Assembly (NCBI GenBank): GCA_002205965.3
Contig: NADL03000533.1
Location: 1-64,000 of the forward strand
Source: Kappaphycus alvarezii
Lineage: Eukaryota; Rhodophyta; Florideophyceae; Gigartinales; Solieriaceae
Length of the DNA: 64,000 bases
Direction: 5' to 3'
Part shown: piece after piece, positions 433 through 63,413 of the stretch
Layout: each line of letters begins with the position of its first letter
Numbering within the stretch: position 1 is the first letter of the stretch
The notes under the pieces: generated by a model
The model's database searches: none
What the model saw: only the letters and a program-made list of their open reading frames with translations
What the model was told of the DNA's origin: nothing
Made by a program: the position numbers and the translations under genes

Positions 433-1106
433 TGCTGAGGTAATCACCTTCACACAACAAATTCTGTGAGGACGATGCATTTGATATTGATAATGCCTCG
501 CTGTGACCAAATGCACGTGCATCCATGTCTATTTGACCAAACTGTATGTTTCATGCAATTGAATGTTAACCCTATACGTACAACTCAGGCGGTTCTCGAG
601 ACAGCGCATGATAAATTTGCTCCCGACCAAAGTACCGTCGCTGTGTCGTTTTCTGAGCATGGTGTCGGGACGAAAAAGGTCCTCTTCGCATCTTTAAATC
701 CGTCCTCGACTAAACGTCCTACCTTTGTCTTTCCAAAACAAATTCTGAATATATTTTTCCTTTATGAGTCCAAATTCACTGTACAACTCCATTTTCTATT
801 TTATGTTTGAATATTTGGTCCTCCTCCTTCAAAGAGACGCCTTTCAACTCGTGGTCACTTCGCCTCCCAAATTCAGTTCCGATATTTTATCACGCAGATT
901 TTTCGATGCCCCGAATTCATGAATATCCAAGGCCGCAGTATCGCCTATTTTTTTTTGACCAAGACCATGATGATTACCAAAGACATGCCCCCATTTAAAG
1001 TGCTATAGCATTGTCGCTGAAGCATCACTCCTACCACCAACAATTAGATAAGCTGATTACTCTTTCTGTTAACATCCGCAACCCCGCTCACCCCTTTTCC
1101 AGAAAT

Positions 1107-1724
1107 ATGACGTCAAACCGCCCCTCTGTCCCTATCTCCAAAAACCGCCCTTCCCGTCCCATCAACGGCCTCCGTCTCGCCGCCTACGGGCCAACCGATG
1201 CCGACGACTACATCCGGCGGCAAACTAAGAAGAAAATCATCGAGTTTGTTAGCCTCCTCTTCATAGAAGAAGAAGCAAGGGAGGTAAGTGTGGATGAGAC
1301 TGAGAAAGTCGAAGAGGAGAGCGAGGAGTCCTTCGAGGAATGGTTAGCCCCTGAGCTAGTGTACGAGACTCAGGAGAAGGATGGGGAGGAAGAGGAGGAT
1401 GGAAAGGATGGAAAGGATTGGGAGGATTGGGAGGAGGAAGAGGAGGAAGAGGAGGAAGAGGAAGAAGAGGATGATGAGGACGAGGACGAGGTGGATGAGG
1501 GAACAGGGGGCATGGAAAGTGTTGGACTGGTGGGGCCTGGACTGGAGAGTATGGAACAAGTGGTGCCGACGCTGGAACCGGATGGAGATATCTTTAGTAG
1601 TTTATATATATCCCAGGAGGTAATAGAGAGCTATGAGCCGTTTGCAGATATTTATGGGGACTGCTTGGACAGCTTGGATATTTCAGAGGAGTTGTTTGGA
1701 TCTGATTTAGAGAATGGGAAATAA
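1107..1724 (+). CDS. acidic protein of 205 aa inside LTR-like element A
   Basis: The reading frame is open upstream of 1107, but this is the first ATG. The N-terminal 30 residues are basic and proline-rich (MTSNRPSVPISKNRPSR), followed by GPTDADDYI. A long Glu/Asp-rich stretch covers roughly residues 65-135, with a run of consecutive glutamates. The C-terminal segment ends LDISEELFGSDLENGK. No known domain is recognised. The minus-strand relative at about 21.0-21.6 kb keeps GPTDYDDYF near the start and ILEELFCSDLED at the end while the acidic middle varies, so both ends look constrained. The acidic tract could be simple low-complexity drift; conserved ends argue that a protein was once made. 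A TATA box follows about 130 bp after the stop. Confidence 0.45.
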   Translation: MTSNRPSVPISKNRPSRPINGLRLAAYGPTDADDYIRRQTKKKIIEFVSLLFIEEEAREVSVDETEKVEEESEESFEEWLAPELVYETQEKDGEEEEDGKDGKDWEDWEEEEEEEEEEEEEDDEDEDEVDEGTGGMESVGLVGPGLESMEQVVPTLEPDGDIFSSLYISQEVIESYEPFADIYGDCLDSLDISEELFGSDLENGK

Positions 1725-1853
1725 GAAGACCTCATTGATTGTTTGTTTCTTAAGTATCTTTTGTTTAGAGTATATCATCCACACAAATGGTTTGTATACA
1801 TTTTCTAGTACCTTCTGTAGTTTTTTTTCGGACTTTAGGGGTAGCCAAAAGTC

Positions 1854-1860
1854 TATATAA
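1854..1860 (+). promoter_or_regulatory. TATA-box-like TATATAA in LTR-like element A
   Basis: TATATAA is followed by a GAGTAAACTGCTTCCT block. The same arrangement occurs in the relative at 4197-4203 and, as TACATAA, in the minus-strand relative near 20.96 kb. It lies about 300 bp before the element's end, where a U3/R promoter would sit in an LTR. Confidence 0.4.
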
Positions 1861-3790
1861 GCTGAGTAAACTGCTTCCTCGTGGAGAGGTCAAGCAAGTT
1901 GGCAGAAAACTTTAAGCCCAGTCCCAAATGGTTTGAAAGTTGAGAGTCAACTTCAGACCCAAGAAGCATTTATTTTACGCTAGTCACCAAGCATAGGTGG
2001 TAGACCTTGCCCCTTACAAACTTGCTTGTAGCCCTTTCAACTGTATTCCCTATGCACTCCTTTTTGTTCGTTCAACTATACCCTGGTAGCACTTTTGTCG
2101 CTTGCAACACCTCCTTCTTGGGGTAGTTGGTTCTGAGGATCTCTTCCCCGCCGATTTATCCCTATCACATGGTATACGTCCGCAACACGCCGTCGCTGAT
2201 ATTGCCCGTAGCGGCCGCACAAGACATCCCTAGCCAAGAAGGTATGCAACAGGGGGACCCTGCAAGCATGTTGCTGTTTTTTCTTGTTGTGCATCCATTA
2301 GCAACGGAAATTGTCCAGCAGACACAGCGTAGTCTACATAGATGGTATGCGGACGACTGCACTCTCATCGGCACTCAAACAGTGCTCGAGAGGGCAGTCG
2401 ACATCCTCAGCTCCAGAGGATCGGACGATGGCTTATACCTGAATCACGCAAAACCCGTCTGTTCTGGCCGCACAGACTCGGTAACTGCACATCGCCGCTA
2501 TTCTACCGCTTCCCAGTTAAGAACTTTTCCACCGAAGGCATCGACCTTCTTGGGCCCTAATTGGGTCGTCACAGTTTATGGAGGATTTTCTGAACGAGGA
2601 AATCAGAAGCTGCAAGCACAAATTGTCGCTGATTGACGGTATCGGAGACGCTCGAATTCGGTTCCACCTTAACCGGGTATGTGCATCCGCTTGCAAGCTT
2701 CAACATGTGGTGAAGCTAACTCCACCGAGTGTGACCACTGCCACTGCACTGAGATTCGACGACGACCAACTCGAATTTTACTCAAGCTCTAACAACTTGC
2801 CGATGACTGATGCAGTTCAACAGCAGGTATCCTCACATCTCCGTTATGGCGGTCACGGCTTCACACCCATAGCAACGCTTAATTTCGCAGCATATGCTGC
2901 GAGAATAATTGACGCCGAGCTGCTGCGGAGCCCTGAGGACAGTGGTGAGACTGAACACCGATACGCTGAAGCGGATAAACACCTCCGGTAGTTTGTCCGA
3001 CGGCTCCCTGCGTCCGTCACTAATGATTTGTTGACGAATTTCGCGCGCAAACCCAACGGCACACAACGGCAATCCACTGAAAGACTTGTGCGGTAAAAAT
3101 GGAGCAGATTCTACTCTACCAAGTAAGGCAAGCAAGCTGGCGCACTCACCTGACTGCGGAGTTCCCGCGGTGAGTGGCCATTCAAGCGAATGGCCTTTAT
3201 AGCTGCCCTCCATCATACCAGTTGACTTCTAGTATCACGGAAAAGAATATCTTTGTGCAAACAGCTCTAGAAAGATCTAGACTAGCCGAGTATATCAACA
3301 ACACCAAGTACTTTGATGTAATATCCGACTTTAAATAGATAGCATATCTGTGAACAAGTGTGCTGGATGACTGTACTGTATTCGGCTTGAAAATGCATCT
3401 GCACCCTTACGCAGAACGCATATGCGCTCATTATAAGTAACCCAAAAGCAACATGACCGCGATTAAACAAAATGATGGCAGTCTTCCGGAAACATTGACA
3501 GCGGCAGGCCTCACAGCCAAGCCCGATAGTACATACAACATTCTGTATCGAGCCTGGTGCGAGTCTGCAGCAAAGTTCTTCTGGAAGGACGACGAATGGA
3601 ACAGGTTGCCAAACCTCGTATCGCATTCAGAAGCAGATATTCTGCGAAGAATTCGACGTCATGCATACTTGGAAACGCAGCCAGGGGCCTTCCTCACCGC
3701 ACACCTCGCTGTAGTCAACCGAACGTCCAACGAGAAGCGGACAGTGATGCTACGCCGTCACCTAGGAGTTCGCGTGTTTGACGACACCGC

Positions 3791-4510
3791 TGATGTGCGC
3801 CAATTCGCACACGAAAAAAATCTAGATGAGGACCATGATTGTATACAGTATCGGAATTGGGAAGATATTTTTACAGTTTTTGAATTTGCAAGATATTTTT
3901 AATTTGGGTGAGTGTGGCAAATTCATCGGTTGATTTTTTCATTTTAGGACACGCTGTCATAGTAGATGTCAGTACAGTTCCAGGTTGTGGGTGATACTAC
4001 GAGTGACTCTGAAAGGACTATATAATGGTCACATCAATTCCCACCCTGGCCGATGGGTGGCTGGCATGGGTATGGCACCTAGATATTTACCTTGAGGAAA
4101 TATCTCCTAATAGTCTCTCTGGTTCACACGATTACCGTGAATACATTTTATGGTTATTAGTATGTTTGTTTGAGACTTTTGGGGTAGCCAAAAGTTTATA
4201 TAAGCCGAGTAAACTGCTTCCTTTAGTGGAGGTGAAGCAAGTTGGCAGACAACTTCAAGCCAAGTCCCGAGTAGTAGGAAGTTGAGAGTCAACTTCAGAC
4301 CCAAGAAAACTTTTTCTTACGCTAGTCGCAGAGCGTCGGTGGTAGACCCTGCCCCTTTTATACTTGCTTGTAGCTTCCTCAACTCTCTTCTATATACACT
4401 CCCTTTTGTTCGTTCAACAATACCACGGTAGCACTTTTGTCGCTCGCAACACCTCCTTCTCAGGGTAATTGGTTCTGAGGATCTCTTCCCCCGCAGATTT
4501 ACCCCTATCA
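3791..4510 (+). mobile_element. LTR-like element C, 720 bp, relative of element A
   Basis: It starts TGATGTGCGC, ends CCCTATCA and is flanked by ACCGC at 3786-3790 and 4511-4515. Removing it and one duplicate restores the LINE reading D-D-T-A-P-L-Q-C. The last 350 bp (from about 4163) align closely to the end of element A, including the TATA box at 4197 and the end motif. The first half shows little likeness to A and no acidic ORF, so it is a shortened or diverged family member. It appears to be a solo LTR, inserted after the LINE copy. Confidence 0.65.
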
Positions 4511-5171
4511 ACCGCACCGCTGCAGTGCGCTGAGTGCCATGGGCCCATTGATATCTTAGGGGACCATGCAGCAGACCTTTGTAACAAAGGTCTTGGGTGG
4601 ACCAACTGGCACACAGCAGTTGTGAGAGTACTTGGGAGAGAGCTGTTTAAAGCAGTAGGAGTTGGCGTCCAATATGAGGTCAAATACCTACTCCCCGGAC
4701 TGAATGCGCGACCCGCAGATATTCCGGTGCACCCGCGATCCGACGTTTTGAATTAACCTCTTCCAGTGGCCTACGACATCACCGTATCCTCGCCATTCCA
4801 GGAGTGCTATATGTCAATGGGAGCACGAAAAGCGCGAGCCATTGCCAACGCAGCAGACAAGCGAAAGAGGAGGGACCTAGCCACGAAAGTGGCCGCCATT
4901 TCTGGCCACGTCCTGCCTGAAAGATCAAGATTAGGATGGGATCTTGTGTCGCTGGCTTTTGACTCGTTAGGATCACCTTCTGAGAAGTCATCAAAGGTCA
5001 TATAGAAATACGCGGCAGCTGTCGCATCGCGCAGCGGATGCTCTACGGGGGGGATGAAGACCTGCTTATACCAGAAACTAAGCTACGCTATTTGGTCCAC
5101 AAGCGCGGCGTCAGTAATATGTAGTGCCCCGCAACACGCAGAAGTTAGTCACCCTATTCAAAACTAATTTT

Positions 5172-5450: not shown

Positions 5451-6770
5451 TGTAGCGACTTCACAGTTTTGCACATACATACAGTATTACAGTGATAAAA
5501 ACAAGTACACACTCAGACAAACCTCAGGCTTTTTTGCGCATTCACACTGAAACCCATTTCAATGCATAATTTCAATGCATCAACCTCAAGGTCTATATCC
5601 TACTATCTGATACAGTGACGTTTCACTTCGTAGTGATGAGAGGACACAAGATCACTCGATTGTCACAAAGGCTGCGATTAGTTTGGTGAACATTTGTTTT
5701 ACTACTGACGAAGAGCCAACTGAAGCGCTATATTGTCAGGGTAATTTATCTATTGAAGACTGCATAAAGAGCCTTTGCTCGGAGAAAAGCGATTATGCAG
5801 TGTAAGGAGATACCACAATGCATGTGGGGGGGATCAGGGTATTGGCCGCGGGGGATTGGGCATTGCGTTCCAACACAGCAATTTCATATTCAAATGAAAC
5901 AACTTACATGGAGTGGGAAGTCGGGATCGGTTTACAGTTAATGGCGTTAAGGATCGACCCCCTGCGCACGTGCAATAAAGTTGGAGACCTCATCGATTTG
6001 GTGCTCGAAAAGAATGGTTCAATACCTGTCATTATAACCATGTACTAGCCACTCCATCAGATAGCCCGAGACATAACCGATGTCTATTTCCAACAATGAC
6101 GCACCTCAACTCTCCTCCGATACTTGGTACGCATTTTTCATGGTTTGAATACAAGTTAATAGGACCGTTATCCTTTCCATTTCCCGCAGTAAACCAACTG
6201 CATTTACCCGATTGTTCACAGAAGCGTTTTCTTGTAAACTGCTTACTGCAAATAAAATGCTGCGAATGAGGACGGCATGTTTTTGTATGATTGTTTCGCA
6301 GTGAGCTGAAGACATCAGCGTCAGCCGGAGGATATCGTATGTCAGAACTCACCAGGTGAATCTGAAGTACCGAAATATGACCTTTGCTGAAAAGGAAATT
6401 TTGAGTGGAAAGCTATAAGACGCCGATTTCTGGTTGACCCACGGTGCAGAAAAGCCGGCCAATGATTATAACAGCCACATCCTTGATGGAGCAGGTAATA
6501 TGTTTATAGCCTCCACTGTACTTCCATGTACTTCTTATATCGTCGGGAGATTACATTTATTCATTCAATATTTGGAGGGCACACCGACTGGGTCTCGGCT
6601 CCATTATTCCCTTAGTTTCGTTAACTAATTATTCATTCCAGTCGCAATTTATGTGACCGCGTCCACAAACAGAAATATTTAAATGAAACTTGTATGAAGT
6701 CGAGACGAACCTTCTTAGACTTAATTTTAAAGGGATTTCCCCTATTCATGAAATGGAGGATATGCGCGAA
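5451..6770. other. no recognised gene
   Basis: Several open frames of 60-106 codons exist (such as 5818-6048 plus and 6032-6352 minus), but none has a recognisable motif and they overlap on both strands. No repeat with another part of the window was seen. Confidence 0.4.
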
Positions 6771-6774
6771 AGGA

Positions 6775-6957
6775 CAACGTTGTGAAAACCAATGCGGCCT
6801 GCTTGATGGCTGGCCTGAAGGTAGCTTTTTAGGGAGCGTAGTTCCTTCCCCATTACTGTGTCGGTATACCCTTTTTGAGTAGATTGTGGTTGTCTGGAAA
6901 GCCATGGGATAGATCGGACATATCTTCCAAGAGTAAAACACCCAAACCTTTTCCCTG
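6775..6957 (+). mobile_element. LINE 3' tail fragment (tail type 1)
   Basis: It begins at the C-terminal coding block (AATGCGGCCTGCTTGATGG), passes GTCGGTATACCCTTTTTGAG, and ends with CTTCCAAGAGTAAAACACCC and a C run. The same order is seen at 11.58, 18.7-18.9 and 19.06-19.27 kb. Only about the last 180 bp of the element is present. Confidence 0.6.
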
Positions 6958-9045: not shown

Positions 9046-10895
9046 ATGCGATCGAGTGCTTTCATTTTAGCAACTGCCCTGTGCTTTGCTCTGCATGAGC
9101 TTGGCGTAGCCCAGAGCAATTCCTGCGGGTTCGGCCAATTCCTCCAGAACGGAAGATGTGAAGATTGTCCCCCTGGAACCTTTCAAGACGAAAAGGGCTC
9201 TACTCAATGCAAACCCTGTCTTCCTGGAACTTACAACCCGTACCATGGCGCCCAAGGCATCGACGTTTGTATTGAGTGTCCGGAGGGCACCTTTCAGAAC
9301 CGCTCGAGAGCAACTTCGATAAGAGACTGTGTTCGTTGTCCTTCCGGAACGAACTCCTCTCCTGGCTCGCCTTCATGTATTTCATGCCCTGCTGGCCAAG
9401 TAATTCAAAACTGTTGGAGTCCTATGTTTGAAACTGATAGCCAATTTAGTTTTCGCGGCAACTGCTTCAACTGCTTCGTATATAACATGGGTTCCGGCTG
9501 CGTGCTAAACGGCACTCCGATCCTTTTTGTCAGGACTGTCGTCCAGGATCATTCAGCGGACCGAACGAGTTTAAGTGTCAAAGGTGTCCAGATGGTACTT
9601 TTTCTGGGGTCGGGTCGTCAACTTGTTCCAGAGACCAATGTCCTCATGGAATGGAGCTAAATTACCTCGGTGTATGCGAGCAATGTACAGGTTTTACCGT
9701 CTTTGACGAGAGCGAATTAGTCTGCAAAGAATGTCCACCAGGATATATCGGGGACTCACCGGAAGGAAGTACTCGTTGTATACCCTGCCCATCTGGTACG
9801 TTCAAATCATCAGATAGCTCGAGGTGCCGTCCATGTGCTCCTGGGGAAAACTCGTTTGTTACGGGTGCGGTATTCTGCGTACCAGACAATACACCTTGCC
9901 CTCCAAACTACTTTCGGAATAGCAACGGTGCTTGCATGAGATGTTCGAACAGACAACGCTTCGATGGGGTACAACAAAAGTGCATCGACTGCCCGAGGAA
10001 CAGCGTGAGTGCCGGCGGTTTAGCTGGGAGATGTGTTAGATGTCCCCGAAACATGATTAGTAGTGAAGAGTTCCCATACTTTGAATTACCATGCGTCTGC
10101 AAACCAGGATTCGGATTTGTGCCAGGTTCCGGTGGAAGACGTTGCATGAAATGTCCCGTGGGAACGGCAGGGCGTGGGAATGGCTACTGTTCAAAATGCT
10201 ATAGTAACAGTATTGCCCCTCGCAGGGGCATGGCGAGTTGTATACCATGTCCTGTTGGGATGAGCCAACCAAATGATGGCCAAGGGAGCTGCATATCGGA
10301 TCCTCCATGTCCGAATGGAACGATACGGGCAGCTAACGGGTGTGTGGAGCCGCAGACAAATTGTCCCATGAACACAAGAAGGGTAACGGTGAGTTTATAC
10401 CAGCTTCCGTTTTGCAATCCAGAAACATGTCCGGCCGGTGTTGCCCTTATCCGAGGAGACTATTCCGAGGCGGATCGATGTGGTGTTTGTGGTCTCGACC
10501 AAAGGTACAATCCTGATACTAGACAATGCGAGTTTTGTGAATCAGGGCAGTTTAGTCCTGGTGGGCTCTTAGAGCGATGTGAGAACTGCACCCAGGGCTT
10601 CTCCTCAGATCGGACTCCAGGAGAATGTTCATGCACGGATGCTAAGCGTATCGTGAGTGGTAGGTGTTCCAAGTGCCCGCCGGGGACCTTCGGATTTAAC
10701 ATGATGGACGGTTGTCGGCCGTGCCCTGCAGGAACATTTTCTGGTCAGGGATGGACATATTGCAGGAATTGCACCGCTGGGTCGTTTAACGATGCACCAG
10801 GACAACCATCCTGCACGTCATGTCCCGAGGGAACAACGAGTTTGGGAGTTGGAGATACTGGATGCGTTGAAATTGGCTCTCTCCCGGATTTCTGA
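9046..10895 (+). CDS. secreted GCC2/GCC3-type cysteine-rich repeat protein, one 56-bp intron
   Basis: Exon 1 is 9046-9477 (144 codons) and exon 2 is 9534-10895, giving 597 residues. The ATG is preceded by a stop-rich leader and followed by a signal peptide (MRSSAFILATALCFALHELGVAQ). The rest is a chain of cysteine-rich units of the form C-x2-C-P-x-G-T-F/Y, such as CEDCPPGTFQDEKGSTQC and CSKCPPGTFGFNMMDGC, matching the GCC2/GCC3 (ephrin receptor/TNFR-like) repeat. Cys spacing continues cleanly across the predicted splice (NCFNCF joined to DCRPGSFSG). No transmembrane segment is visible near the C terminus (GSLPDF), so a secreted extracellular role is likely; ligand unknown. It is the longest intact coding sequence here and has no transposon-like domain. 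Confidence 0.85.
9478..9533 (+). other. 56-bp spliceosomal intron in the cysteine-rich gene
   Basis: It starts GTATATAAC and ends CCTTTTTGTCAG, with a branch-like GTGCTAAAC about 28 bases before the acceptor. Its length is not a multiple of three, and removing it moves the frame from exon 1 directly into the long downstream frame with conserved Cys spacing. A genuine frameshift is the alternative, but signals at both ends make an intron much more likely. Confidence 0.75.
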
Positions 10896-11574: not shown

Positions 11575-11818
11575 GTGGGTTTTGATGCAAAGGCACGCAG
11601 CAGCAGCCGTTATGTACAATGCGCCCTGCTTGACGGCGGGCCTGAAGGCGGCCTTTTAGGGAACGTACTTCCTTCCCCATTACTGTCTCGGTATAACTTC
11701 TTGAGTCGATTGTGTTTGCCCAGAAACTTTAGGATAGATCAAATACATCTTCCAACAGTATAAAACCAAGATAGAATGGTCGGGTATTTTACTGCGTCCT
11801 CTGACACTTCTAGCTGGG
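11575..11818 (+). mobile_element. LINE-tail repeat, target of the gypsy insertion
   Basis: It has the same order as 19060-19385: GATGCAAAGGCACGC, GGCCTGAAGG, TTCCTTCCCCATTACTG, CTTCCAACAGTA, then a unique block ending CTCTGACACTTCTAGC. The Ty3/gypsy element interrupts it at CTGGG, and the repeat seems to resume at 17973. Confidence 0.6.
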
Positions 11819-12243
11819 TGAAACAGAGAGGGACGCAGCCGGGGTGCTGCTAAAGAAACTGTAGAGGCGATGGTAATGGGTTTCTGAAAGTTGGGGGCAA
11901 AGGGTGTATGGAGTGTACCTGGATTCCCACAAGAATCCAGATGAGCCCCCCTTTTATAGACAGTACGGTAACTCTACTCTAGAAATTCTATACTCTGTTA
12001 GCTCAGTAGAACTTACTAGAAAGTAGAGGTGTAACTATAGAATTGTACTATCTAGAATATAACTACGTAAATAAAAACGATGACGTGGGGCTCCAAGTCA
12101 AATAAAACATTGAGGGAAAATCAAATTTCTAAAATCATTCAAGACGATACAGTTTCCCTGTTACACCACTGTGTAATAGGAACTGGAATAGCGACAGCGA
12201 ACAAGTCTCTATTACACAGTGGTGTAACAGAGACATTGTTACA
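11819..12243 (-). repeat. 3' LTR of the Ty3/gypsy element
   Basis: 425 bp with TG..CA ends. It contains a 20-bp perfect inverted repeat (12160-12179 with 12209-12228) close to the outer U3 end in element sense. Confidence 0.9.
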
Positions 12244-15200
12244 CTATTCCCTCCCCCGGACTATTGACGTCCTCGTCAATGATACTGCGGGAGTATATTA
12301 TGTTTCCGAGAATACTCTTGGAAAGCTTCCGTTACTACAGCAGATCCATCTTCCGTAACATCAACGAAGTCCTTTGTTGGTTGCCACTCCGCCTCATGAC
12401 GTGGCCACCACGCATCAGAACCAAGAACTTGAAACCGCGTCCAACCTTTTTGTGATCAAGATAACCTCAACTTCCTGTTCTGGTCCATCAGGCAGCTCAA
12501 GCGGTGCAGGTGCAGGAGGAATAGGTAAAGCAATGTCATTGGGCTGCTCCAAATGTGGTGTGGTGTGAATGATATGAATGACTGGATGGATTTTAAAATG
12601 ATCAGGGAGATCCAGTCGAACAGCATTCTTACCAATTAGCTCCTTAACCACGAATGGCCTATATCTACGCGCACCAAGCTTTTTAGAGTCCTGGGACCTA
12701 GAATAAACATCTGTAAACAACGAGCGATTGATCCAAAGCTTTGAACCGACTTGTAATCTGGAACCTTGTATCGCCTTGAAGCATATGCAGCTTGCCGAGC
12801 TTTTGCCACTTTGTAGGCAAATTGCGCATCCTCCAGAGAAACCTTGAGCTTGGCACGAAAGTCGTCCAAACTTTGAAGAGTATGCTGCTGCTAGCCAAGA
12901 AGTCCAATGGCGATTTAGGTGTCCATCCCAAGTCCAGCTCAAATGGTGACATACCCAGATCATCGCTCACAGCCGAGTTGTATGCAAATTCTGCAGAAGG
13001 AAGCAGTTCATCCAGTCATCCTGATGATACGAGCAATAGAACGGAGATAGTTCTCGATCATCCTATTCATAATCTCAGAAGCCCATCTGTTTGTGGGTGT
13101 CTACTTGTAGACATTCTTAATTTCACCCCACAAAGATTCATTAGTGTCTTCCAAAACTTTGAAATGAACTTGCTGTCCCTATCTGAGGTCACATCATCAG
13201 GCAACCCGTGGTTCTTGAATATGTTCGCGAAGAAGTCTCGAGCCGTGTCCTCAGCAGTATCTGATGTTTTAGATTTAAGAAAATGGACTCGACGAGTAAG
13301 TCGATCAACCCAAGACACTGATTTCATTGTGAGGCTAAGGGTAGCCTCACAATGAAATCTGTAGCTAATGAACCCATCTGCGGTCAGGCAATTCCAGTGA
13401 CATTGGATCAGTCAACTTTTTTGATTAGAGTCCTTATACTGCTGACACGTGAGACATCCTTCACAATACTTTCGAACATCCCGGCTCTTATGTTTCCAAT
13501 GGAAGTTATCTAATCTGGACAGTGTCTTCGCAAATTTAAAATGTCCACCAACTTTAGAGTCGTGAGCAATTTGCAAAATATCCGAAACTGACCTTCTTGG
13601 TATGCACAACTTTCCATTGTAAAACAGCCTCGAACCATCTTTTCGGAACATTGGCAGAATTCTTTCAAGTTTCTGCTTCTGAACCATATCCTCTGGCCAC
13701 TCTCCTTCCATGGCTTTTACCACTGGACCAAAGAACTGGTCGTCATCATACCGAGGAATGATCTGATCAACTCAAGGTAGGGAATTTCAACGTCATTCAC
13801 TGAGATGTCACGGTCTCCTCTAGTCACGTGCGGAGCTCTGGATAATGCGTCTCCCAAGACGTGAATTCTTCCAGGCTTCAGTGTGATGGGAAAGATTCCG
13901 AAGTTACCGAGAGTTTCCAACCAACGTGCTTCTTTCCGACTCAGTTTCGGTTTTGTGAAGAAGCTCTTAAGCACTTGGTTGTCTGTGAAAATCTTAAATT
14001 CAGAACCTTCAAGATGACACCTGAATCTTCCCAGAAAATTAATCAAAGCCAGAAGCTCTCTGTCATTTGCAGTGTAGTCCGACTCAGCTGGTAAAGTTCT
14101 TTGAATAGAAAGAAATTACACGATCTCTTCCATTCTCATCCAACTGTGTTAGAGTTCCACCGACAGCAAGCTGTGAAGCATCTACATGACCACGAAATGG
14201 CTTGTTCCAATTAGGAGCGACTAAAATTGGAGCCAATGTCATCGCTTCCTTTAGCTTCTGAAAAGCTTAATCACACTGCTGGTCCCATTTCCCAATACCT
14301 CGACTCTTCTTTGTCAGATCTGTGAGAGGTGCCGCAATTGCCGAGAACTTCTGAATGAACCTACGGAAAAACTGTATTAGACCTAAGAAACTTCTCAACT
14401 CCGTTAGAGATTCAGGTTTCGGCCAAGTTTGTAGGACTTCGACCTTATCTGGATTGACACGAATGCCGTGCTTCCCGACTATTAAATCCAAAAACTCTAG
14501 CTCAGTCTGAAAGAAAGAGCATTTTTCGGAGAGATGTACAGCTTGTGGTCCTTAAGTCTCTTTAATACAATTTCCAGATGCTCGTAATGTTCGTCCTCAT
14601 TCTTACTGAATATAAGAAGATCATCCATATAGACAACCAAGAAGACATCGATGCAATCATAGAAGATCTGGTTCATCAAAGTTTGGAACGTAGCAGGAGC
14701 GTTGCAAAGTCCCATTGGCATAAAAGATATTCAAATTGCCATATTTGTAATGAACGCAGTCTTTTCGATGTCCTCCGGTTTCACACTTATCTGATGGAAT
14801 CCGGTTTTCAGATCAAGCTTGGAGAAAAATTTCGCATCTCCAAGTCGATCGAACATTTCATCAGAACGAGGGAGTGGAGCATTATTCTTTTTGGTGATGC
14901 GATTCAAAGCGCGATAATCGACAACACCTCTAAGTTTTCATCTTTTCTTTCACAAAGAAAAGTGGTGCTCCATATGATGATTTACTGGACCTGATCTCCT
15001 CTTTCCTCAGAAGAGACTCGACGTACTCTTTTGCTGCCCTAAGTTCGGATGGAGACAACTGGAATAAAGGTCGATGAGGTGCCTTTGCTCCTTCCTCCAC
15101 TTTGATCTCATGATCAACTGATCGAATCGGAGGAAGCCCTCTTGGCAATTCATCCTGAAAGACCTCTTTGAAATTATCCAGTAATCTGCTCAGTCTTCCA

Positions 15201-17545
15201 TCGAACTTTGAATCTGTCACTCCTGTCATACTGTGAACTTCAAGTAACTGAAATACTTCGAAGTCACCCCCATGCCTCAGCATTCGTCTAAATTTCTTCA
15301 ATCTCAAATTGGACACATCAATACGATTTTCTTCATCGGAATCAATCACTGGAATGGAAGCATCTTTCACCATCACAATTCGTTTCCGATAGTCGTCACG
15401 TGGATTATGGGCAACATACCACGGTATTCCAACAGAACATCATACCTGTTTGGGACACAGCCCAACTGAAGTATATGTATGTTCGCCTAACTGAATAGTT
15501 CCGTTGGAAATGATCTCAGATACTTCCTCAGTGTCTCCCTCTGTGAATGGCAAACAATGACTCGTTCACGCCGAATCTCAAAAAGTTCCTATTTCGCTTC
15601 AGGAACTCGGCTGAAACCACGTTTGTATTGCATCCATCGTCCTTTAGTACTTTGACTGCTATTCCATTCAGTCTACCTTCAAGTACTAACAAAGGCTCCA
15701 CTGGTATAGGTCCATCAGTGGGGATGCTGTCATCATGACTAGAGTGATTCCATTAGACTCGGCTTCGGAGATTCTCGACTTTTCCCTGTCCTCTGAGAAT
15801 TTAGCTCCGGTGATGTCCACAACAGTTTCACTCTGCTCATTGGGACATCTTTTCACACTCACTACTGGTCTCACCTGAGTGTTCACCAAGTCTGGTGGAC
15901 CAACTAGTTTCCCGAGTCAAAGCCATTCAAATCATTACTGTGTCCTGCCTGTGTATTGTTCGCCGCTATGCGAGTACCACCCCTGTTACCTTTATTCCCG
16001 TTTCCTTTTCTGTGTTTACAAGGTCTACATCCACCTTATGGCACGTAAAGCATCGGTTCTCCATCAAGTCTTTCTGACGCTGCCCATCGTTTTTACGTTC
16101 AAGGTTTCCAATCTCCATCGGCATAGGACCTGAGGCATTTCGATTGGCGTGAAATGAACCTCTGCCAGTGAAGAACCTGCACCATAAAATGCTCCGTCAA
16201 CGTTGAGAGCAATGGTAGTCGCAGCTTCAAACTTGGATGGGTTTCCTTTACGAACCTCCAACAGAATGTGGGGTTTGAGACCTTCACAGAACCGCTCCAA
16301 TTTTTCCGACTCACTGATACCGGGAATATTGATAACCAAATTCCTGAACTCTGAGAGGTACGCAGCCACACTCGTTTTCTGGCGGATCTTGGTAAGTTTG
16401 TCGCGAGCTCGAATGACACTGTCCTGGGGGACAAACTATGCCTCAACCAGGAGTTTGAAAGCTTCCCATGTAGGAGGAACAGCATTCTCGGACACAACTG
16501 TATACCACCAGTTTGCGGCAGTTCCGGTCATGAATGTCGAAGCAAAGTCGATAGCATTCTGGCACTGATGACTTCTTCATGGCCCACCTGAATAAGTCTC
16601 AGGTATTTACGACTGAATGCAACCATGACCGAACTGTTAACGCATCTCGAGTCCCATCGAACAACACAGGCTTATTTGGTTTGAAGAAAGACATGTTCAA
16701 CAAACCTCTCACTTAAAGCCTTACAATAACACCTAAACTTGAATACAAGCACTTGAAGTTGAAATCTGCAAGGGATTCGTCCTGGACGACGGGTTGGCTC
16801 CCTACCCGCGAAGAGAGTGACTCACCAGCAGCTTTAATCACACCTAACTCCGATGTGACTCAGCAATCCGTTCGGAATATCCCCATCAGTCCACTATCTA
16901 GACCGCGATCGGTTCCTTACCCTATAGGAAAGCCTCTCAAGCCGACTCTAAGCTAGCGAATAACCAAAGAATACCCTTTCTGAGCACGTACCCCTTAGTC
17001 CAAGTCCAGTCCAAGTCAACCCTATGAAGCGTTACCTGAACCCGTGACCCAGTCGGTGCACCTAGCTAACAGCCAACGAGTGCAATAGGATTGTATAGGA
17101 ATACTGTGAGGGGTCCCTCAAATGGGGACTTGGTCAGAAGTACGGCTTTACTAAGGCAACTTAGTTAAGCCTAACTGTCCAGTCTAAGTATTCTGAAAAG
17201 GATCACGCAGCTTCGTGAGGCCTGCACGCTACCTGAACAGAATAACCTAGAGAACGCAGACTAGGCTGTACCCCCAAGTTCCCGGTTACCTAGTTCTCCA
17301 ATTAGTAACCGCGACCTGCGTAGAACAATGGGGTTTAGAGTACCTGGCACTCCAGCCCGCAGATACTCTCCTGTACTTGGCACTCCAGCCCACAAGTACA
17401 GTATATGATATTGCTTACAGTAAACCTGTCAGCAAAATTTTTCCAAAAAATCAACAACCCAAAAAATACACGTGTAAGAAAACCTCGAACTAGAGCAAGA
17501 CGAGAAGCGAAAAAGCAGCGGAACCGGCGAAAGCGATGCTACCAG

Positions 17546-17972
17546 TGAAACAGAGAGGGACGCAGCCGGGGTGCTGCTAAAGAAACTGTAGAGGCGATGG
17601 TAATGGGTTTCTGAAAGTTGGGGGCAAAGGGTGTATGGAGTGTACCTGGATTCCCACAAGAATCCAGATGAGCCCCCCTTTTATAGACAGTACGGTAACT
17701 CTACTCTAGAAATTCTATACTCTGTTAGCTCAGTAGAACTTACTAGAAAGTAGAGGTGTAACTATAGAATTGTACTATCTAGAATATAACTAAGTAAATA
17801 AAAACGATGACGTGGGGCTCCAAGTCAAATAGAAACATTGAGGGAAAATCAAATTTCTAAAATCATTCAAGACGATACAGTTTCCCTGTTACACCACTGT
17901 GTAATAGGGAACTGGAATAGCGACAGCGAACAAGTCTCTATTACACAGTGGTGTAACAGAGACGTTGTTACA
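17546..17972 (-). repeat. 5' LTR of the Ty3/gypsy element
   Basis: 427 bp with TG..CA ends, about 99% identical to the other LTR by eye (two substitutions and two single-base length differences). Confidence 0.9.
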
Positions 17973-18085
17973 CTGGGAATGTAAAACAAACTAAAACATT
18001 CCTCCTTGATAGACTAGCACGAAACTTGTTCTACAGAGGGGGGAAGGTTTTGGTGATGTATGATTGTAGTTGTTTGGATTACGCT

Positions 18086-18166
18086 AATACAATGTCCATT
18101 ATATCTTTAAAAAGGGCAGAAAGTTTTTGGTGATTTACTTTTGAAAGACATAATGGACATTGTATT
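18086..18166. repeat. 17-bp perfect inverted repeat
   Basis: AATACAATGTCCATTAT at 18086-18102 is matched by its complement at 18150-18166 with a 47-bp spacer. It lies between the gypsy element and a LINE fragment and may be the tips of a very short MITE. Confidence 0.6.
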
Positions 18167-18174
18167 GGAGTACT

Positions 18175-18700
18175 CCAAACAACGACGATTGACTCAAAAG
18201 GGCAATGCGCTTCCTAAAAGATGGCATCATGGCCAGACAAAAAGCAGGCCGCATTGGACATGACGGCCTGCTTGTTGCAGAAGAACTACGTACCGTAGTT
18301 TCAACATGCGAATTCATTTAAAACCCTACTGCAACAAAACCTAGAAAACTAGGTTTGAATAGGGTGGCTGAACTCTGCATGTTGTGAGGCGCAACATGAC
18401 TGCCGCGGCGCACATGGACCAAGTTGAATAAAGAAGCTGCTCATAAAGTCGAGTTTTCAATTTTCCCGTCGAGCATGCACTGCGGGTTGCGATAGCGGCT
18501 GAATATTCGTCGATTTTGTTCGAAGTCATCGCAGATGGCGAACCAAGCGAGTCGAGAGCTGGTGGCACAAACTTCCACCTTAATTTCGATAGTCCTGGAA
18601 GAGTTTCACCAGGAATGGCTGCAAATTTGCTGGTCAGCACCCTATTCTTTTGTCGTTCATCTGTACTGGAAAAGACACGCGCCTCGCGCGCCCCGTAGAC
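18175..18700 (-). mobile_element. LINE C-terminal and 3' fragment
   Basis: On the minus strand it encodes KFAAIPGETLPGLSKLRWKF, ALDSLGSPSAM and STWSMCAAAV, equivalent to AISGHVLPERSRLGWD..FDSLGSPSEK in copy L1, so it is the last domain of the LINE protein. Sequence at 18175-18340 resembles a LINE type 1 tail. Confidence 0.6.
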
Positions 18701-19270
18701 GGGGGGGAACGTTTGGGTGTTTTACTCTTGGAAGAAATATCCGATCTATCCCATGGTTTTCCAGACAAATACAATCGACTCAAAAAGGGTATACCAACAC
18801 AGTAATGGGGAAGAAACTACGCTCCCTAAAATGCTACCTTCAGGCCTGCCATCAAGCAGGCCGCATTGGAAATGACGGCTGCTGCAGCGTGCCTGCCCCG
18901 TAGACGTAAAGTCCTCCTTGAATGGCAATGTCACTGTGACATTGTATACCACTGGGAGAGGTGGAGAGGTATTCGTGACTTCAGACCTCAGATTCACAAG
19001 GATGTAAACACGACGGGCATTCAGTCTGGGAAACAAGTGCTTAACTTCACATTGGACAGGGGGTTTTGATGCAAGGGCACGCTGCAGCAGCCGTCATGTC
19101 CAATGCGGCCTGCTTGATGGCTGGCCTGAAGGTAGATTTTTAGGGAGCGTAGTTCCTTCCCCATTATTTTGTCGGTATACCCCTCTTTTAGTCGATTATA
19201 GTTGTCTGGAAAACTTTACGATAGATCGAATACGTCTTCCAACAGTAAAAGCACCCAGACCTTTCCCTCC
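18700..19270. mobile_element. two LINE 3' fragments head to head (inverted repeat unit)
   Basis: 18706-18905 is a minus-strand type 1 tail (GGAACGTTTGGGTGTTTTAC at its end) and 19055-19270 the same segment on the plus strand. About 150 bp of unrelated sequence lies between. The arms are about 200 bp each and clearly similar. The pair could act as a single inverted-repeat element or be two separate insertions. Confidence 0.6.
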
Positions 19271-20650: not shown

Positions 20651-22050
20651 TGGTAGGGATAAATCTGTAGGGATGATATTGCCAGAGCCAGTTATCCTAA
20701 AGCAGAGGCGTTGCAAGAGACAGGAGTTCTACCGAAGTATGCTTTTGGGAACAAAGACATATGTTTAAGGACGGTTCAAGGAGCTACAAGTGAGTATTGA
20801 AGGGGCAGGGTCTACCATCCATTCTCAGGGACTAGCGTTAAGGAAAAGCTTCTTAGAGCAGAAATTTATTCTCAATCTCTGGACTACTGTCGTCTGCACT
20901 TGAAGTTTTCTCCCAATTTGCTTGTAATCTCCCGGAGGAAGCAGTTTAACTAGCTTATGTAGACTTTTTGTCTAACCCTAAACTCTCAAATAAACATACT
21001 AGGTACTATAAAATGAACTCAAGGGAATCTTGTGGGCGAGAGAGTCTAACAATAGATATTATCAGGGTAAAAAGATATTTTCCTCACAGCCTTTATCTTC
21101 TAGATCAGAGCAAAATAGTTCCTCCAAAATATCCACACCCCCAAAGCAGTCCCTAAAAATTCCGTCGAACGGCCCAACATGATAGATATCTTCCTCTGAC
21201 ATATCAAGTTCCTCCGATCCCTCCTCACGACCTTCAACTGCCTTCTTATCAGAGGAGTCAGAAATAACGATTACTCTCTCACTCTGTCAACCTTCCTCTA
21301 CAGCAGTTCCCCCACCGTTGTACACCAGTGGCTCCCATGGGTCCACCCAGTCCTCCGCACCTTCCAATACTTCCACATCAGCCTCAGCCTCCTCCTCTGT
21401 CTCCTCTGCCTCCTCGAAGCAGTGACCGCGGACCCACTCCCAAAAGCTTTCCCGGTATATTCTTATCGGTCCATTAATCTAAAGTAATCGTCGTAGTCAG
21501 TGGGCCCATTGGCCATCAAGGCCAGAGCATTGAAGATCAGCGACCTTGGGATGACTTGAAGATGGTGAAGAACGGGCGGAGGTTGGTCATATTAGGGGAA
21601 AAGGGTGGTGAGCAGACGGGGTGGTTGACAGCAGGGGCTTGCTTCAATGACGTTGATGTCGAACTATAAACAGGGCGATGTCTTCTGGAAGTTTTACGGT
21701 CTTGGGCGAAATAAAAAATTCGAGGAAAAGGCACAGCTTTGACCTTGCACGCAATCGGCGGAATAATAAAATATCCGCTTGATAAAATATCGGAACTGTG
21801 TTTGGAGGACCAGCGGATCAAGAATTGAAAAGTCTTTCGTCGAAAAAGTAGGAGTAAATATTCATAAATAAAATGGTAAATAGAGTCGTACAGTGAATTC
21901 AGGCTCATGAAGTAAAAGGGTCTTTATGGTTTGGTCCCTGAGAAAAGACGAGAAGGGCGATTGGTTTTAAAAGAAAGAGGTCAGGTATAAGGAAGGCACG
22001 ATTTGGTATAGAGAACCGTTTCCTACGGAAGAACCTGTTTCCTATCAACA
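20651..22050 (-). mobile_element. LTR-like element B, 1.4 kb, decayed relative of element A
   Basis: Read on the minus strand it follows element A along its whole length: TTCACTGTAC and AGTTCCGATATTTTATCA blocks upstream, a remnant of the acidic ORF, a TACATAAGC TATA-like box, AAACTGCTTCCTC and the end motif ATTTATCCCTACCA. Possible flanking duplications are AGCAT (20646-20650) and ATCAT (22051-22055), one mismatch, so the outer edge is less sure than for A. The acidic ORF is recognisable at both ends but broken in a few places. It is clearly older than A. Confidence 0.6.
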
Positions 22051-41174: not shown

Positions 41175-42275
41175 ATGGACAACGTTTCTTTCCAAGCGGT
41201 TGAAGAAAAGGTACTTTATGCTACAGCAGCTGTTGAGAAAGGTGACTACCTTGCCGCTGCTCCAGCATTCGGCGCGGCTGCCACTCTCTGTCAAGATACC
41301 CTCGTTCGTCTATTCTGCTCACAAGCTAATGCATTGATCTCCGCAGATTTGTATCAAGATGCCCTCCAAGTTGTCGAATCCCCCATCCGAATAGCACCAA
41401 CAGTCGCACGTCCGTGGTATTTGAAAGGTACCGCTCTTCTAAAACTAGGCCAGAGATTATTAGCACGAAAAGCGTTTGAGAAGGCCGCATCCTTGGAGAC
41501 GGTCCGCACTGTGAAGATGTCATACATGGATTGGGCAGCTCGATGCGATGAGCCACCTGAGGAGGATACAGACGATGATATTGTTACACTTGACGTGACT
41601 GCACAAAGTGCAAGGACTGTGCCCGTCAAAACTGCGATGAAAGCATCGGCCCATGCCAAGCGCAAAGAAGCAAACGATTCGGCCAGTACATTGCAATCAT
41701 CACAGCCACCGACCGATAATACAAATATGAAATGGTACCAATCGGCGTCTCACATCAGTATCGATGTGTACGCGAAGAACGTTATTGCAGAGCAAAGCTC
41801 TGTGAAGTTCGAATCAACAAATCTCAGAGTGCATCTAGTTCGTCCCGACAAGCCAGACTATGTGTTGAACAAAGATCTTTATGCGGCGATCATTGTGGAA
41901 GGTAGTACATGGAGCGTCAACAAATTTAAAGTTGAGATCAGGATGAAGAAGGCTACTGCCGCTTCCACGTGGAAAGCACTTGACAGAGATGCGCAAGTTC
42001 TTTCAGCTGCTCGGCAAGCTGGCGCGGAATCAATACGGAGAAAGGAAGTGCAGGAAGGTCGGAATAAGGAGTGGAAATCACTGGCCGAGAAGGAACTAAA
42101 GGATTACAAGGAAGATGACAGTCCCATGGCGTTATTCCGTACTTTATATAAGGATGCGGATGAGGACATGCAACGCGCTATGTTGAAGAGTTATTCTGAA
42201 AGCGGGGGTCAAGTTTTGTCCACAAACTGGGATGAAGTCAAGAAGAAGAAGGTCGTCTATGAAGAAAAACATTAA
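41175..42275 (+). CDS. SGT1: SGT1 co-chaperone (TPR, CS and SGS domains)
   Basis: 366 residues, intronless, ATG at 41175. An N-terminal TPR region covers residues 4-110 (LFCSQANALISADLYQDAL, WYLKGTALLKLGQ). A variable acidic linker follows. The CS domain covers about 184-270 (MKWYQSASHISIDVYAKNV to VEIRMKKA), the surface that binds HSP90 in this family. The SGS domain occupies 296-366 (KEWKSLAEKELKDYKEDDSP, YSESGGQVLSTNWDEV). This three-domain order is diagnostic of SGT1, an HSP90/SKP1 adaptor in SCF ligase and kinetochore assembly and in immune-receptor folding. Length is near normal and no defect is seen. It is the clearest host gene here. Sequence to 42660 looks like its 3' flank with nothing else. 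Confidence 0.95.
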   Translation: MDNVSFQAVEEKVLYATAAVEKGDYLAAAPAFGAAATLCQDTLVRLFCSQANALISADLYQDALQVVESPIRIAPTVARPWYLKGTALLKLGQRLLARKAFEKAASLETVRTVKMSYMDWAARCDEPPEEDTDDDIVTLDVTAQSARTVPVKTAMKASAHAKRKEANDSASTLQSSQPPTDNTNMKWYQSASHISIDVYAKNVIAEQSSVKFESTNLRVHLVRPDKPDYVLNKDLYAAIIVEGSTWSVNKFKVEIRMKKATAASTWKALDRDAQVLSAARQAGAESIRRKEVQEGRNKEWKSLAEKELKDYKEDDSPMALFRTLYKDADEDMQRAMLKSYSESGGQVLSTNWDEVKKKKVVYEEKH

Positions 42276-42667: not shown

Positions 42668-43490
42668 GGCAAACCGAGTGGTCCACGTCGGCCAGGCGCT
42701 CGAGCAATATTACCTCATTTCATTGAGGACCCAAGGATTCAGCTAAGGCGATGGGTTGTGGTCTGGCATATCGCTTAGTCACACGTATATTGCGAGCTAC
42801 GCGTGTAATAGACTTCTCTAATAGACGGATAATTGCTGGGTATGCAGCAACCAGGGAGTCGAGTGGAGCGGGTCGAAATGTGTTCCTAGAGCACGGAACG
42901 GGCCGTGGGGGGGAAGCGGCGCGGGAGCGAAGCGGCGCGAGAGCTTACGCTCCCGCGCCGCTTCTGAATGGCCTCATTGCTGGTGATGGCGACACAGCGG
43001 AATTGTCAGGGGCAATGGATTACGTCTATTGGCTGTTGGAAGAAACGAGAGGGTGCTCAAATATGTCCGCGAGCCGAAGATCTGTGCCGCGGACAAGGGG
43101 AGGGATCTCAAAATAGCCATTTAGCCTCGCGGCGCGGGGAACGTAGCGGCCGACAGCGTTGTGGAGGGAATTGTGAGGGTGGGTGCGACCGAATCTGGAA
43201 ATGCAGAGATCTGCCGCTTGATCCCCAAGGGATTCCATAGCTTTCTTGCGACCAAATCTGAAAATGCAGATCTGCCGCTTGATCCCCAAGGGATGCCATA
43301 GTTTTCTTGCAATACTGGCAGGTAAACGGGAGGAAGCCCGAGAACACGGGAATCCTGGATTTGTGGCCCTGAGGCTGTAGCGGTAGCGTATCCTGTGGCC
43401 TTCCCGCAGCACTGTGATAGAAGAGGTTGGGTTGAGGGAGTCCGCCGAGAAGGTTAGAACAAAAAGAATCCTTTCTTGCCTTCTATCCAT
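42668..43490 (-). mobile_element. LINE fragment L9 (finger/nuclease region, tail type 3)
   Basis: Minus strand: FTCQYCKKTMASLGDQAADL is the finger with His replaced by Gln, then GRTHPHNSLHNAVGRYV, LVRGTDLRLADIFEHPLV. It ends in the tail GGCCGACGTGGACCAC (42668-42693 region), also found at 44499-44525 and 57987-58013. A 61-63-bp tandem duplication at 43188-43310 repeats the finger region. It is 5' truncated. Confidence 0.6.
42913..42964. repeat. GC-rich hairpin, 17-bp perfect stem
   Basis: GAAGCGGCGCGGGAGCG (42913-42929) pairs with 42948-42964 around an 18-base loop that itself repeats AAGCGGCGCGAGAG. It lies inside LINE fragment L9 and interrupts its coding sense. It might be a folded micro-insertion. 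Confidence 0.7.
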
Positions 43491-44572: not shown

Positions 44573-46378
44573 GGGGGAAATTGGGGTGTTTAAATGATTG
44601 AAACATAGGTTAGCCTACGTTCCAATGCGCATCAAATAATTGGTACAAGCAGTCGGCATGGGGAACCAAGAAACGGAACTAATGTGGGTCAAAGTCGCTA
44701 GAAGGCTGACGTGAGACCAGCCAGCAGGCAGGCCGCGTTGGACGTGGCAGTGGCCGCAGCGTGCCTTTGCATGAATATCTCGCGAACCTTCCCGTATGAT
44801 CCCATGGCCCTGACTGCAACGCTTCTTGCCACTTCGGTTATGACGGCGTAAGCGTCTGGATGCCAACCGGCGAGGGTGGATATGGGCACGGGGGCGAGTC
44901 CGCCTCGAGAGGAAGTAGCGATGAAAGATTGGTACTTTCTGTGCTTCGCTGCTCGGGCTGCGTTAAGGGAGGTCAAGGGATTGAACGTGTTGACTCTCCT
45001 GTTCGATGACACGAGAGGATTGACAAGAGTGATGTGGAAGAAGTCAGGCCCCCGCGGCTTCCCATTGTCCGAATATCCGGTCTCGTACGGTGAGGGCCCT
45101 CTCGCGGCTCAACGACGGGATCACGGGCGGCTTTGGCCAGGTCCCTAGCCAAAAGATTCACTTGCCGGTCGTGGCGGATGCTCCTGTGGGGGCCGTGCAG
45201 CCAGTGGAGGAGGTGGTCACCATAGACGTCCAACTTGTGCGGGCAGTTTGCTCTTGGGCATGGTGTGCCAGGAGCAAACAGCGGGACTTGGCAATGATAT
45301 TGGAGCCACTGGGAAAATTGTCGGGCCTCGATATGCGTTTGCAGTCCGGGACATGGCGCACAGTATACCCATTCCTTGGAGCCCGGAAGCCCCATGGATG
45401 CGCGGAAAGCTTGCCTCCTGCAGTCTCCGGTGAGAATCGCCTGTTGCACTGCCTAATGAGAAGCATCCGTTAGTTTCTTCTGCGGTAGTGTTTCTTGAGG
45501 GCAGAACACGTTGAACGGGATGATCTTGGACGGTAGGCAAGACATGGACCATTTCCGATGGGCGTCCACGGCGGCGGCGTACGTTTCCAGAGACTGGATT
45601 GGCGGTGGCAAGAAGTGTCTGGACAGGTTGTCCGTTGGCGAGCTTGACGCGAGGAAGGCTGCGGGGGCGATAGCCTTCGCGGAGGTGAGCCCTATTCCCA
45701 AGGAGGGCTTTTTGGGGTCCGCGGGCTTGACCGGCAGCTGGAGCTCTCGGAAGACCTCGGAGTCTAGAACACCCCCCGCAATGGACCGTAGGCAGCGCTC
45801 CATTCTGCGGTCGAACTCCATCGCGCCTTCGGTGGTGCAGGATGGGGGCAGGAGGTAGCCCATTTTGCAAACCCCAACGCATGATCGCAGAAGTTGGAAC
45901 GCTACATGTTTGTCTTCCAAGTCTGCGATTGAGTCCAGGAATGGCTGGAGGGTTTCGATGTGAGCCATGAAAGACTGCCTAGTGAATTCCTCAGATCCCA
46001 CTGGGGCGTTCAGTACGAGGGCACCTCGGCCGTAATCCTGCCTGAATTCCGCCGGGTACGCGTCTTGTACTGGCTGCGGTGGGGCTGTAGGCCACCAAAT
46101 AGCGCATTCTGATGGCGACAAGTGTAGCCCCCGGCGGTTCGCGTCTCCCGACGACAGGATGTCGACCACCCTGTCGAGTTGGTCGTGGCGCGCAATAATG
46201 TTCCCATCGTCGTGGTACCAGAGTTGAAGCAGTAACCTGGCCACTGTCCCGTCTTCTTCGTCCTGTGAACTAAGGAGTTCCTGTATTTTGAGGACGATAG
46301 GATGTAAAGCCAAGTCAAACAGGAGACCCCCAAGGTTATCTCCTTGTTGCGTCCCGTGGACACTCCGGATTATGCAGT
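44573..46378 (-). mobile_element. best-preserved LINE copy L11 (RT motif B to 3' end)
   Basis: Open from 46378 to 45453: RT motif B HGTQQGDNLGGLLFDLALHP, motif C LWYHDDGNIIA (Asp pair kept), LHLSPSECAIW, then a long linker. A single in-frame TAG (45453-45455) is followed by QQAILTGDCRRQAFRASMGL, the finger and RHDRQVNLLARDLAKAARDP, and RTRPDIRTMG. A frameshift near 45050 leads to FFHITLVNPLVSSNRRVNTF and the C-terminal LAGWHPDAYAVITEVARSVA, ending at 44698. The type 1 tail ends in a C run at about 44573. There are thus only about two breaks over some 560 codons. The 5' end is cut just before motif B, next to a GTACAGTA motif. Confidence 0.8.
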
Positions 46379-46429
46379 AAAGTACAGTATTATACCACAT
46401 AGTAAGCCATAGATTCTGATAGCGCGAAA

Positions 46430-50520: not shown

Positions 50521-50529
50521 TGCCCCGCA

Positions 50530-59095: not shown

Positions 59096-59099
59096 GCCA

Positions 59100-63290: not shown

Positions 63291-63413
63291 AGGTCATTGA
63301 AATGCTAAGAGTTCGGTAGTACTTTGAAATAGAAATCTAAACTAGAAAACGGAGTTGAAAAATCTTTAATATTTCGGGAGATATCTCCAGTTAAACACAA
63401 AAAGCCTGGCAAT

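What the first reader, a model, noticed from the sequence alone, without database searches (positions are those of the whole stretch)
663..2167. LTR-like element family carrying its own acidic ORF upstream of the promoter
Three relatives (663-2167, 3791-4510, 20651-22050) share TG..CA ends and a TATA box 300 bp from the end; A and C have perfect 5-bp duplications, B a one-mismatch candidate. The two longest carry an ORF for an acidic protein whose two ends are conserved between diverged copies while the middle varies. An ORF lying in the U3-like part of a solo LTR is unusual; a few LTR elements are known to do this, but I do not recognise this protein.
Basis: partly seen in the sequence, partly recalled or inferred. 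Interest (0 to 1): 0.75.

Follow-up and report, generated by a model that had tools for sequence, protein, structure and literature searches.

The report
Solo LTRs with an acidic gene
Three scattered copies look like the leftover end-repeats of one jumping-gene family, and two of them carry an intact or broken gene for a very acidic protein inside the repeat itself, an arrangement known from mouse mammary tumour virus but not yet proven to be functional here.

Summary
A (663-2167) and B (3791-4510) are exact TG...CA insertions with perfect 5-bp duplications: joining their flanks gives a reading frame that runs on across each junction and aligns there without a gap to uninterrupted relatives of the same host retrotransposon in the window. 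C (22050-20651, minus strand) has a 4-of-5 duplication. All three share a 3' core (347-428 aligned columns, 70-84% identity) with a TATA-like box 310-313 bp from the end. The best reading is solo LTRs of one diverged LTR-retrotransposon family. No complete element of it is in the window and no host genome is held, so this stays an inference.

The ORF (1107-1724, 205 aa, net charge -54) is intact only in A. C has a broken homologue of both ends; B lacks it, its first 295 bases being unrelated. ORF length exceeds chance. Selection on the protein is moderately supported: third-position differences are 43 of 97 in the unpicked ORF ends (p 0.016) against 102 of 285 outside the ORF (p 0.21). Most likely it is a U3-encoded accessory gene already present in the A-C ancestor, placed as MMTV sag is. 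Expression and function are inferred only.

The parts
658..662 (.). 5' target-site duplication of A (CATGG)
   Evidence: flanking frame runs on when one copy is kept
663..2167 (+). Copy A: solo-LTR-like element, TG...CA, 1505 bp
755..903 (+). U3 block shared with C (75% over 149 bp, no gaps); no coding signal distinguishable from the non-coding comparisons
1045..1059 (+). Second TATA-like stretch, 13 of 15 bases as at 1854-1868; possible own promoter of the ORF (inferred, noticed after the fact, absent from C)
   Evidence: 1 of 1000 block shuffles as good; gap in C in the alignment
1091..1102 (+). Pyrimidine-rich tract ending in AG, 4 bases before the ORF's ATG: possible splice acceptor (inferred; AG not kept in C)
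   Evidence: read from sequence
1107..1724 (+). Intact ORF of 205 aa, 70 D/E, net charge -54; ends similar to the broken copy in C
1854..1861 (+). Main TATA-like box TATATAAG, starting 313 bp before the element end
1816..2167 (+). Conserved 3' core (TATA box, R- and U5-like part) shared by A, B and C
2168..2172 (.). 3' target-site duplication of A (CATGG)
3786..3790 (.). 5' target-site duplication of B (ACCGC)
3791..4510 (+). Copy B: 720 bp, same 3' core, unrelated first 295 bases, no acidic ORF
4511..4515 (.). 3' target-site duplication of B (ACCGC)
20651..22050 (-). Copy C: 1400 bp, 5' block, broken ORF and 3' core of the A type; TSD 4 of 5
21062..21590 (-). Broken homologue of the acidic ORF in C (similar stretches at 21531-21478 and 21208-21095)

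Best explanation
A, B and C are solo LTRs left by LTR-LTR recombination from separate insertions of one diverged family of LTR retrotransposons in an unidentified eukaryote. All share a 3' core of promoter, R and U5. Upstream of it U3 is modular: A and C share a module of about 1 kb that held a protein gene in their common ancestor, while B carries a different, shorter U3. In a complete element the gene would lie at the 3' end of the genomic RNA, in the 3' LTR, and would be expressed from a spliced RNA or from its own U3 promoter, as MMTV sag is. A solo LTR could still express it from such a promoter. The protein, acidic and without confidently predicted structure, with a C-terminus rich in D, E, L and F that is partly kept in C, would most simply act in the nucleus as an activator or chromatin-binding factor for the element's promoter. 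Shown: exact insertions of A and B, family relation, intact ORF in A, broken homologue in C. Inferred: LTR identity in the strict sense, recombination origin, expression, function.
For: Exact insertion: flanks joined at one TSD copy give a frame that runs on and aligns without a gap at the junction to relatives at 51053-51223 (A; 42% over 57 aa, E 3e-12) and 52140-52793 (B; 35% over 221 columns, gaps only away from the junction, E 1e-34). TG...CA ends and TSDs. TATA-like box 313, 313 and 310 bp from the end. No direct repeat joins the two ends of A, B or C. A two-LTR element in the same window (LTRs 17972-17546 and 12243-11819, 423 of 427 columns identical, TSD CCCAG) shows that TG...CA elements with 5-bp TSDs insert in this genome. 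ORF: 0 of 1000 and 1 of 1000 shuffles reach its length. Third-position differences A-C: 43 of 97 in the unpicked ORF ends, p 0.016, against 102 of 285 in the columns outside the ORF, p 0.21. In the 56 codons that tblastn picked, 32 of 65 differences are at third positions; a neutral simulation that also picks its best blocks reaches that fraction in 12 of 3000 runs at the divergence of these blocks (0.387), and in 89 of 3000 at divergence 0.30. C-terminal 25 codons: dN/dS 0.22.
Against: No complete element, PBS, PPT, gag or pol of this family was seen; the host genome could not be searched. The codon tests rest on one pair of sequences. Amino-acid identity of the picked ends (31 of 56) is not unusual if neutral divergence was 0.30 (1453 of 3000 picked simulations reach it; 64 of 3000 at 0.387); the first simulation, without picking, overstated it. 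Each ORF end alone gives p about 0.07, as does the non-coding stretch 1725-1815 (16 of 34). In the C-terminal block an antisense frame also gives a low dN/dS, 0.33. The ORF ends are no better conserved than non-coding parts (54% and 61%, against 75% in 755-903, 60% in 904-1106, 71% in the core). The purine-rich middle makes long ORFs easier. Only one of three copies is intact. No Pfam match above its cut-off, none in the PDB at E 0.01; the single-sequence model is poor (mean pLDDT 42.8).
Confidence: 0.6

Rival explanations
1. They are solo LTRs, but the ORF is a by-product: a purine-rich simple-sequence expansion in U3 that happens to lack stops on one strand. The likeness between A and C is ordinary DNA relatedness.
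For: The middle of the ORF is purine-rich with repeats at 9-base steps; ORF absent from B, broken in C; identity of the ends is not unusual under picked neutral simulation at divergence 0.30 (1453 of 3000); one non-coding stretch shows a similar third-position excess.
Against: Length rarely reached in shuffles that keep local composition (1 of 1000); third-position excess in the unpicked ends (43 of 97, p 0.016) and not in the pooled columns outside the ORF (102 of 285, p 0.21).
Confidence: 0.3
2. A captured host gene fragment: the acidic coding stretch was picked up into U3 of one lineage (A and C) and has no role in the element.
For: B, with the same core, has an unrelated 5' part and no such ORF, so the module was gained or lost as a block.
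Against: No positive evidence: no Pfam or PDB relative. No host proteome is held, so it could not be tested.
Confidence: 0.15
3. Not LTRs but another kind of non-autonomous mobile element with 5-bp duplications, carrying its own small gene.
For: No complete two-LTR element of this family was seen; the 5' ends of A, B and C agree in little more than TG.
Against: TG...CA ends, TATA-like box at a fixed distance from the 3' end, conserved 3' half and variable 5' half as in a known LTR family, no inverted repeats of 14 bases or more within a copy.
Confidence: 0.1

Closest known systems
Mouse mammary tumour virus LTR with sag/naf in U3 (PMC9412291, passages seen)
   Same: Protein gene inside U3; a second U3 promoter (P2) can drive it. 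That it lies upstream of the main promoter is recalled.
   Different: Retrovirus of vertebrates, Sag is a superantigen; no sequence relation was tested; here no complete element is known.
crapaud, an LTR retrotransposon of Podospora (PMC10787394, passages seen)
   Same: Conserved 3' half of the LTR and a diversified U3 preceding the TATA box; LTR types that look recombinant.
   Different: LTR subfamilies of 339-443 bp; the passages seen mention no gene in the variable part.
Foamy virus tas/bel genes (PMC7828637, passages and legends seen; overlap with the LTR recalled)
   Same: Accessory genes between env and the LTR, Tas being a transactivator.
   Different: Vertebrate retrovirus; no similarity tested.
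Bdelloid rotifer LTR retrotransposons with added ORF3 (PMC5408684, passages seen)
   Same: LTR elements that gain family-specific extra ORFs, typically expressed from spliced messages.
   Different: LTRs of 159-551 bp; the ORF3s are described after gag and pol, and the phrase 'within the ltr' does not occur in the text.
Two-LTR element at 11819-17972 in this window (Ty3-like by my reading; RT_RNaseH match)
   Same: TG...CA LTRs, 5-bp TSD, same host.
   Different: LTR matches to A, B and C are no better than E 0.26; the longest ATG ORF on the sense strand of its 5' LTR is 19 aa.

Membership tests
LTR retrotransposon (as solo LTR) | TG...CA ends with a 4-6 bp target-site duplication | tested here: met
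   A and B 5 of 5 bases, C 4 of 5; junctions of A and B confirmed by host frames
LTR retrotransposon (as solo LTR) | Core promoter inside the repeat, at a fixed place among copies | tested here: met
   TATA-like box 313, 313, 310 bp before the 3' end; promoter activity not tested
LTR retrotransposon (as solo LTR) | Complete elements with this repeat at both ends, PBS, PPT, gag-pol | not testable with these tools
   no host genome held; none in the window
TRIM (miniature two-LTR element) | Direct terminal repeats inside the copy | tested here: not met
   no direct repeat joining the two ends in A, B or C at 14 bases or more
U3-encoded gene (MMTV sag type) | Protein-coding gene within U3 under selection | tested here: inconclusive
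   intact in 1 of 3 copies, broken in 1, absent in 1; codon tests moderate
U3-encoded gene (MMTV sag type) | RNA and protein made from the ORF | not testable with these tools
   no expression data held
BUD22 (Pfam PF09073) | Score above Pfam cut-off | tested here: not met
   16.7 bits against 37, over residues 47-130, which include the acidic stretch

The most novel reading that the evidence does not exclude
An LTR-retrotransposon family, outside the vertebrate retroviruses, whose U3 carries a selected gene for an acidic nuclear regulator, so that every solo LTR of this type is a self-contained gene plus the promoter it may regulate, with the gene module exchanged between LTR types.
Probability: 0.3. 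Interest if true: 0.65.

Novelty: new variant of a known kind. Interest (0 to 1): 0.42.

Why it matters
A gene inside an LTR is present twice in every complete element and survives when the element collapses to a solo LTR, so it can persist, spread and be taken over by the host without the rest of the element. The examples I recall are vertebrate retroviruses. If real, this family would allow a direct test of whether U3-encoded regulators arose independently elsewhere.

Tried and rejected
A second conserved ORF at 764-922 (similar to a stretch in C): rejected as evidence; in its frame the differences by codon position (16, 9, 12) and dN/dS 0.55 are no better than in the non-coding comparison A-C of the core (dN/dS 0.68, 0.49, 1.32 in three frames).

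A and B as the two ends of one element with 2168-3790 between them: rejected; each has its own duplication, and the host frame runs on at both junctions.

Relation to the two-LTR element of the window: no LTR match better than E 0.26.

Relatives outside the window: the protein (11 pattern matches, 0 confirmed) and two DNA patterns (0 matches each) gave nothing in viral contigs. The RNase H of the two-LTR element, as a probe for host-like contigs, gave 11 pattern matches and 0 confirmed. Genome contigs (bacteria and archaea) were scanned with one DNA pattern only: one 20-base match in a Vibrio contig, not followed; from the collection's 257 billion bases I estimate about two chance matches.

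Rfam and tRNA scans of the window were empty. The structure model of the 205-aa protein is of low confidence, so no fold search was made.

Papers: searches (nothing found). Of six phrases of the form 'ORF in / within / inside the LTR' one paper held one, PMC9412291 on MMTV. This does not show that no other case is in print: most subscription papers are missing and wording varies. PMC4717578 (passages) reports miniature LTR elements in Chondrus crispus; not pursued, since the host is not identified.

Full report
What is there. A, 663-2167, begins TG and ends CA, and is flanked by CATGG on both sides. B, 3791-4510, is flanked by ACCGC. C, 22050 to 20651 on the minus strand, is flanked by ATGAT and ATGCT.

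Are the ends real? A and B both sit in a decayed retrotransposon whose stretch after A matches RVT_1 (33.1 bits, cut-off 29.6). I call it R2-like, with a restriction-like endonuclease part, from memory; no call tests that name. With the element and one duplication removed, the frame across A runs on and aligns without a gap to 51053-51223 (42% over 57 aa). The frame across B runs on and aligns to 52140-52793 (35% over 221 columns, no gap at the junction) and to 59215-58751 (36% over 159 columns, with a two-residue gap a few residues after the junction). These are empty-site tests on relatives, not on alleles, but they place both junctions. For C no such test was made.

The family. All three share their last 347-428 aligned columns at 70-84% identity. 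A profile built from that part finds the three, as it must, and no further copy in the window; the next hit is at E 0.11. A TATA-like box starts 313, 313 and 310 bp before the end. A and C also share a 149-bp block (75%), the ORF remains and weaker stretches. B's first 295 bases match neither. U3 is therefore modular, much as described for crapaud, where variation is mostly limited to U3 before the TATA box (PMC10787394, passages).

Why solo LTRs. TG...CA, a 5-bp duplication, a TATA-like box inside, a conserved 3' half and the absence of repeats joining the ends of a copy fit. A two-LTR element in the same window gives a local yardstick: LTRs of 427 and 425 bp, 423 of 427 aligned columns identical, duplication CCCAG, a purine-rich tract before the 3' LTR; its pol pieces lie in several separate ORFs, one matching RT_RNaseH. 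Its LTRs are not related to A, B and C (best E 0.26). Without a complete element of this family the identification remains an inference. The host genome is not held.

The ORF. 1107-1724 encodes 205 aa with 49 E and 21 D, charge -54. Dinucleotide shuffles of A gave an ORF that long in 0 of 1000, shuffles within 60-base blocks in 1 of 1000. tblastn of the protein on the window finds C at 21531-21478 (12 of 18 residues) and 21208-21095 (19 of 38 residues, in the search with the middle masked), in different frames and with stops. In B the only match is at E 6. The sequence of the gene was thus present before A and C parted and is broken in C.

Is it under selection? In those 56 codons 65 bases differ, 32 at third positions, and 31 residues are identical; with the same substitutions placed at random the mean is 19.6 and 0 of 20000 reach 31. 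That test ignores that the blocks were picked by similarity. A simulation that also picks gives 31 or more in 64 of 3000 runs at divergence 0.387 but in 1453 of 3000 at 0.30, so identity alone is not decisive; the third-position fraction is reached in 12 and 89 of 3000. Without picking, the ORF ends have 22 of 50 and 21 of 47 differences at third positions, together 43 of 97, p 0.016; the columns outside the ORF have 102 of 285, p 0.21, although one of them, 1725-1815, has 16 of 34. The acidic middle shows no excess (47 of 143), where alignment is doubtful. The ORF is not better conserved than non-coding U3. I rate coding in the ancestor as likely, not proven. Changes in C after it broke would weaken the signal.

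How it could work. In a complete element the 5' copy of the ORF lies before the transcription start, and the 3' copy at the end of the genomic RNA. Two local features could give it an RNA of its own: TAGATAAGCTGATTA at 1045-1059, 13 of 15 bases as at 1854-1868 (1 of 1000 block shuffles as good), 47 bases before the ATG; and a pyrimidine-rich tract ending in AG at 1101-1102, 4 bases before the ATG. Neither is kept in C, so both are speculative and were noticed after the fact. MMTV uses a U3 promoter, P2, for Sag (PMC9412291, passage). The acidic composition and the D/E/L/F-rich C-terminus suggest a transcription or chromatin factor; this is analogy only. No Pfam or PDB match supports it, and the model has no residue at pLDDT 70 or more.

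Host. Not identified. The window has an SGT1-like ORF (CS and SGS domains above cut-off), a Cys-rich ephrin-receptor-like ORF and a DDE_Tnp_1_7 transposase. A red alga was my guess from memory; no call tests it.

Verdict. The interest lies in a gene inside U3 outside vertebrate retroviruses, which needs the host genome to settle.

Noticed in passing
11819-17972: Two-LTR element on the minus strand (Ty3-like by my reading), LTRs 423 of 427 columns identical, TSD CCCAG, RNase H and other pol pieces in separate ORFs.
   Followed up: partly
2169-5000, 18533-19057, 43050-43238, 45453-46436, 50148-52976, 58492-59215, 63039-63293: Decayed relatives of the retrotransposon that hosts A and B (tblastn; 45453-46436 also by its frame).
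   Followed up: partly
56223-57663: Transposase ORF matching DDE_Tnp_1_7 (piggyBac-like, name recalled), continued in overlapping frames.
   Followed up: no
9046-10895: Cys-rich ORFs in two overlapping frames; the second matches Ephrin_rec_like.
   Followed up: no
41175-42275: SGT1-like single ORF of 366 aa with CS and SGS domains; TPR matches are below cut-off.
   Followed up: no
18063-18189: 52-base inverted repeat with 23 bases between the arms (87% complementary), close to the 5' LTR of the two-LTR element.
   Followed up: no
6750-6955, 11577-11702, 18703-19187: A further short repeat family in both orientations, 67-92% alike.
   Followed up: no
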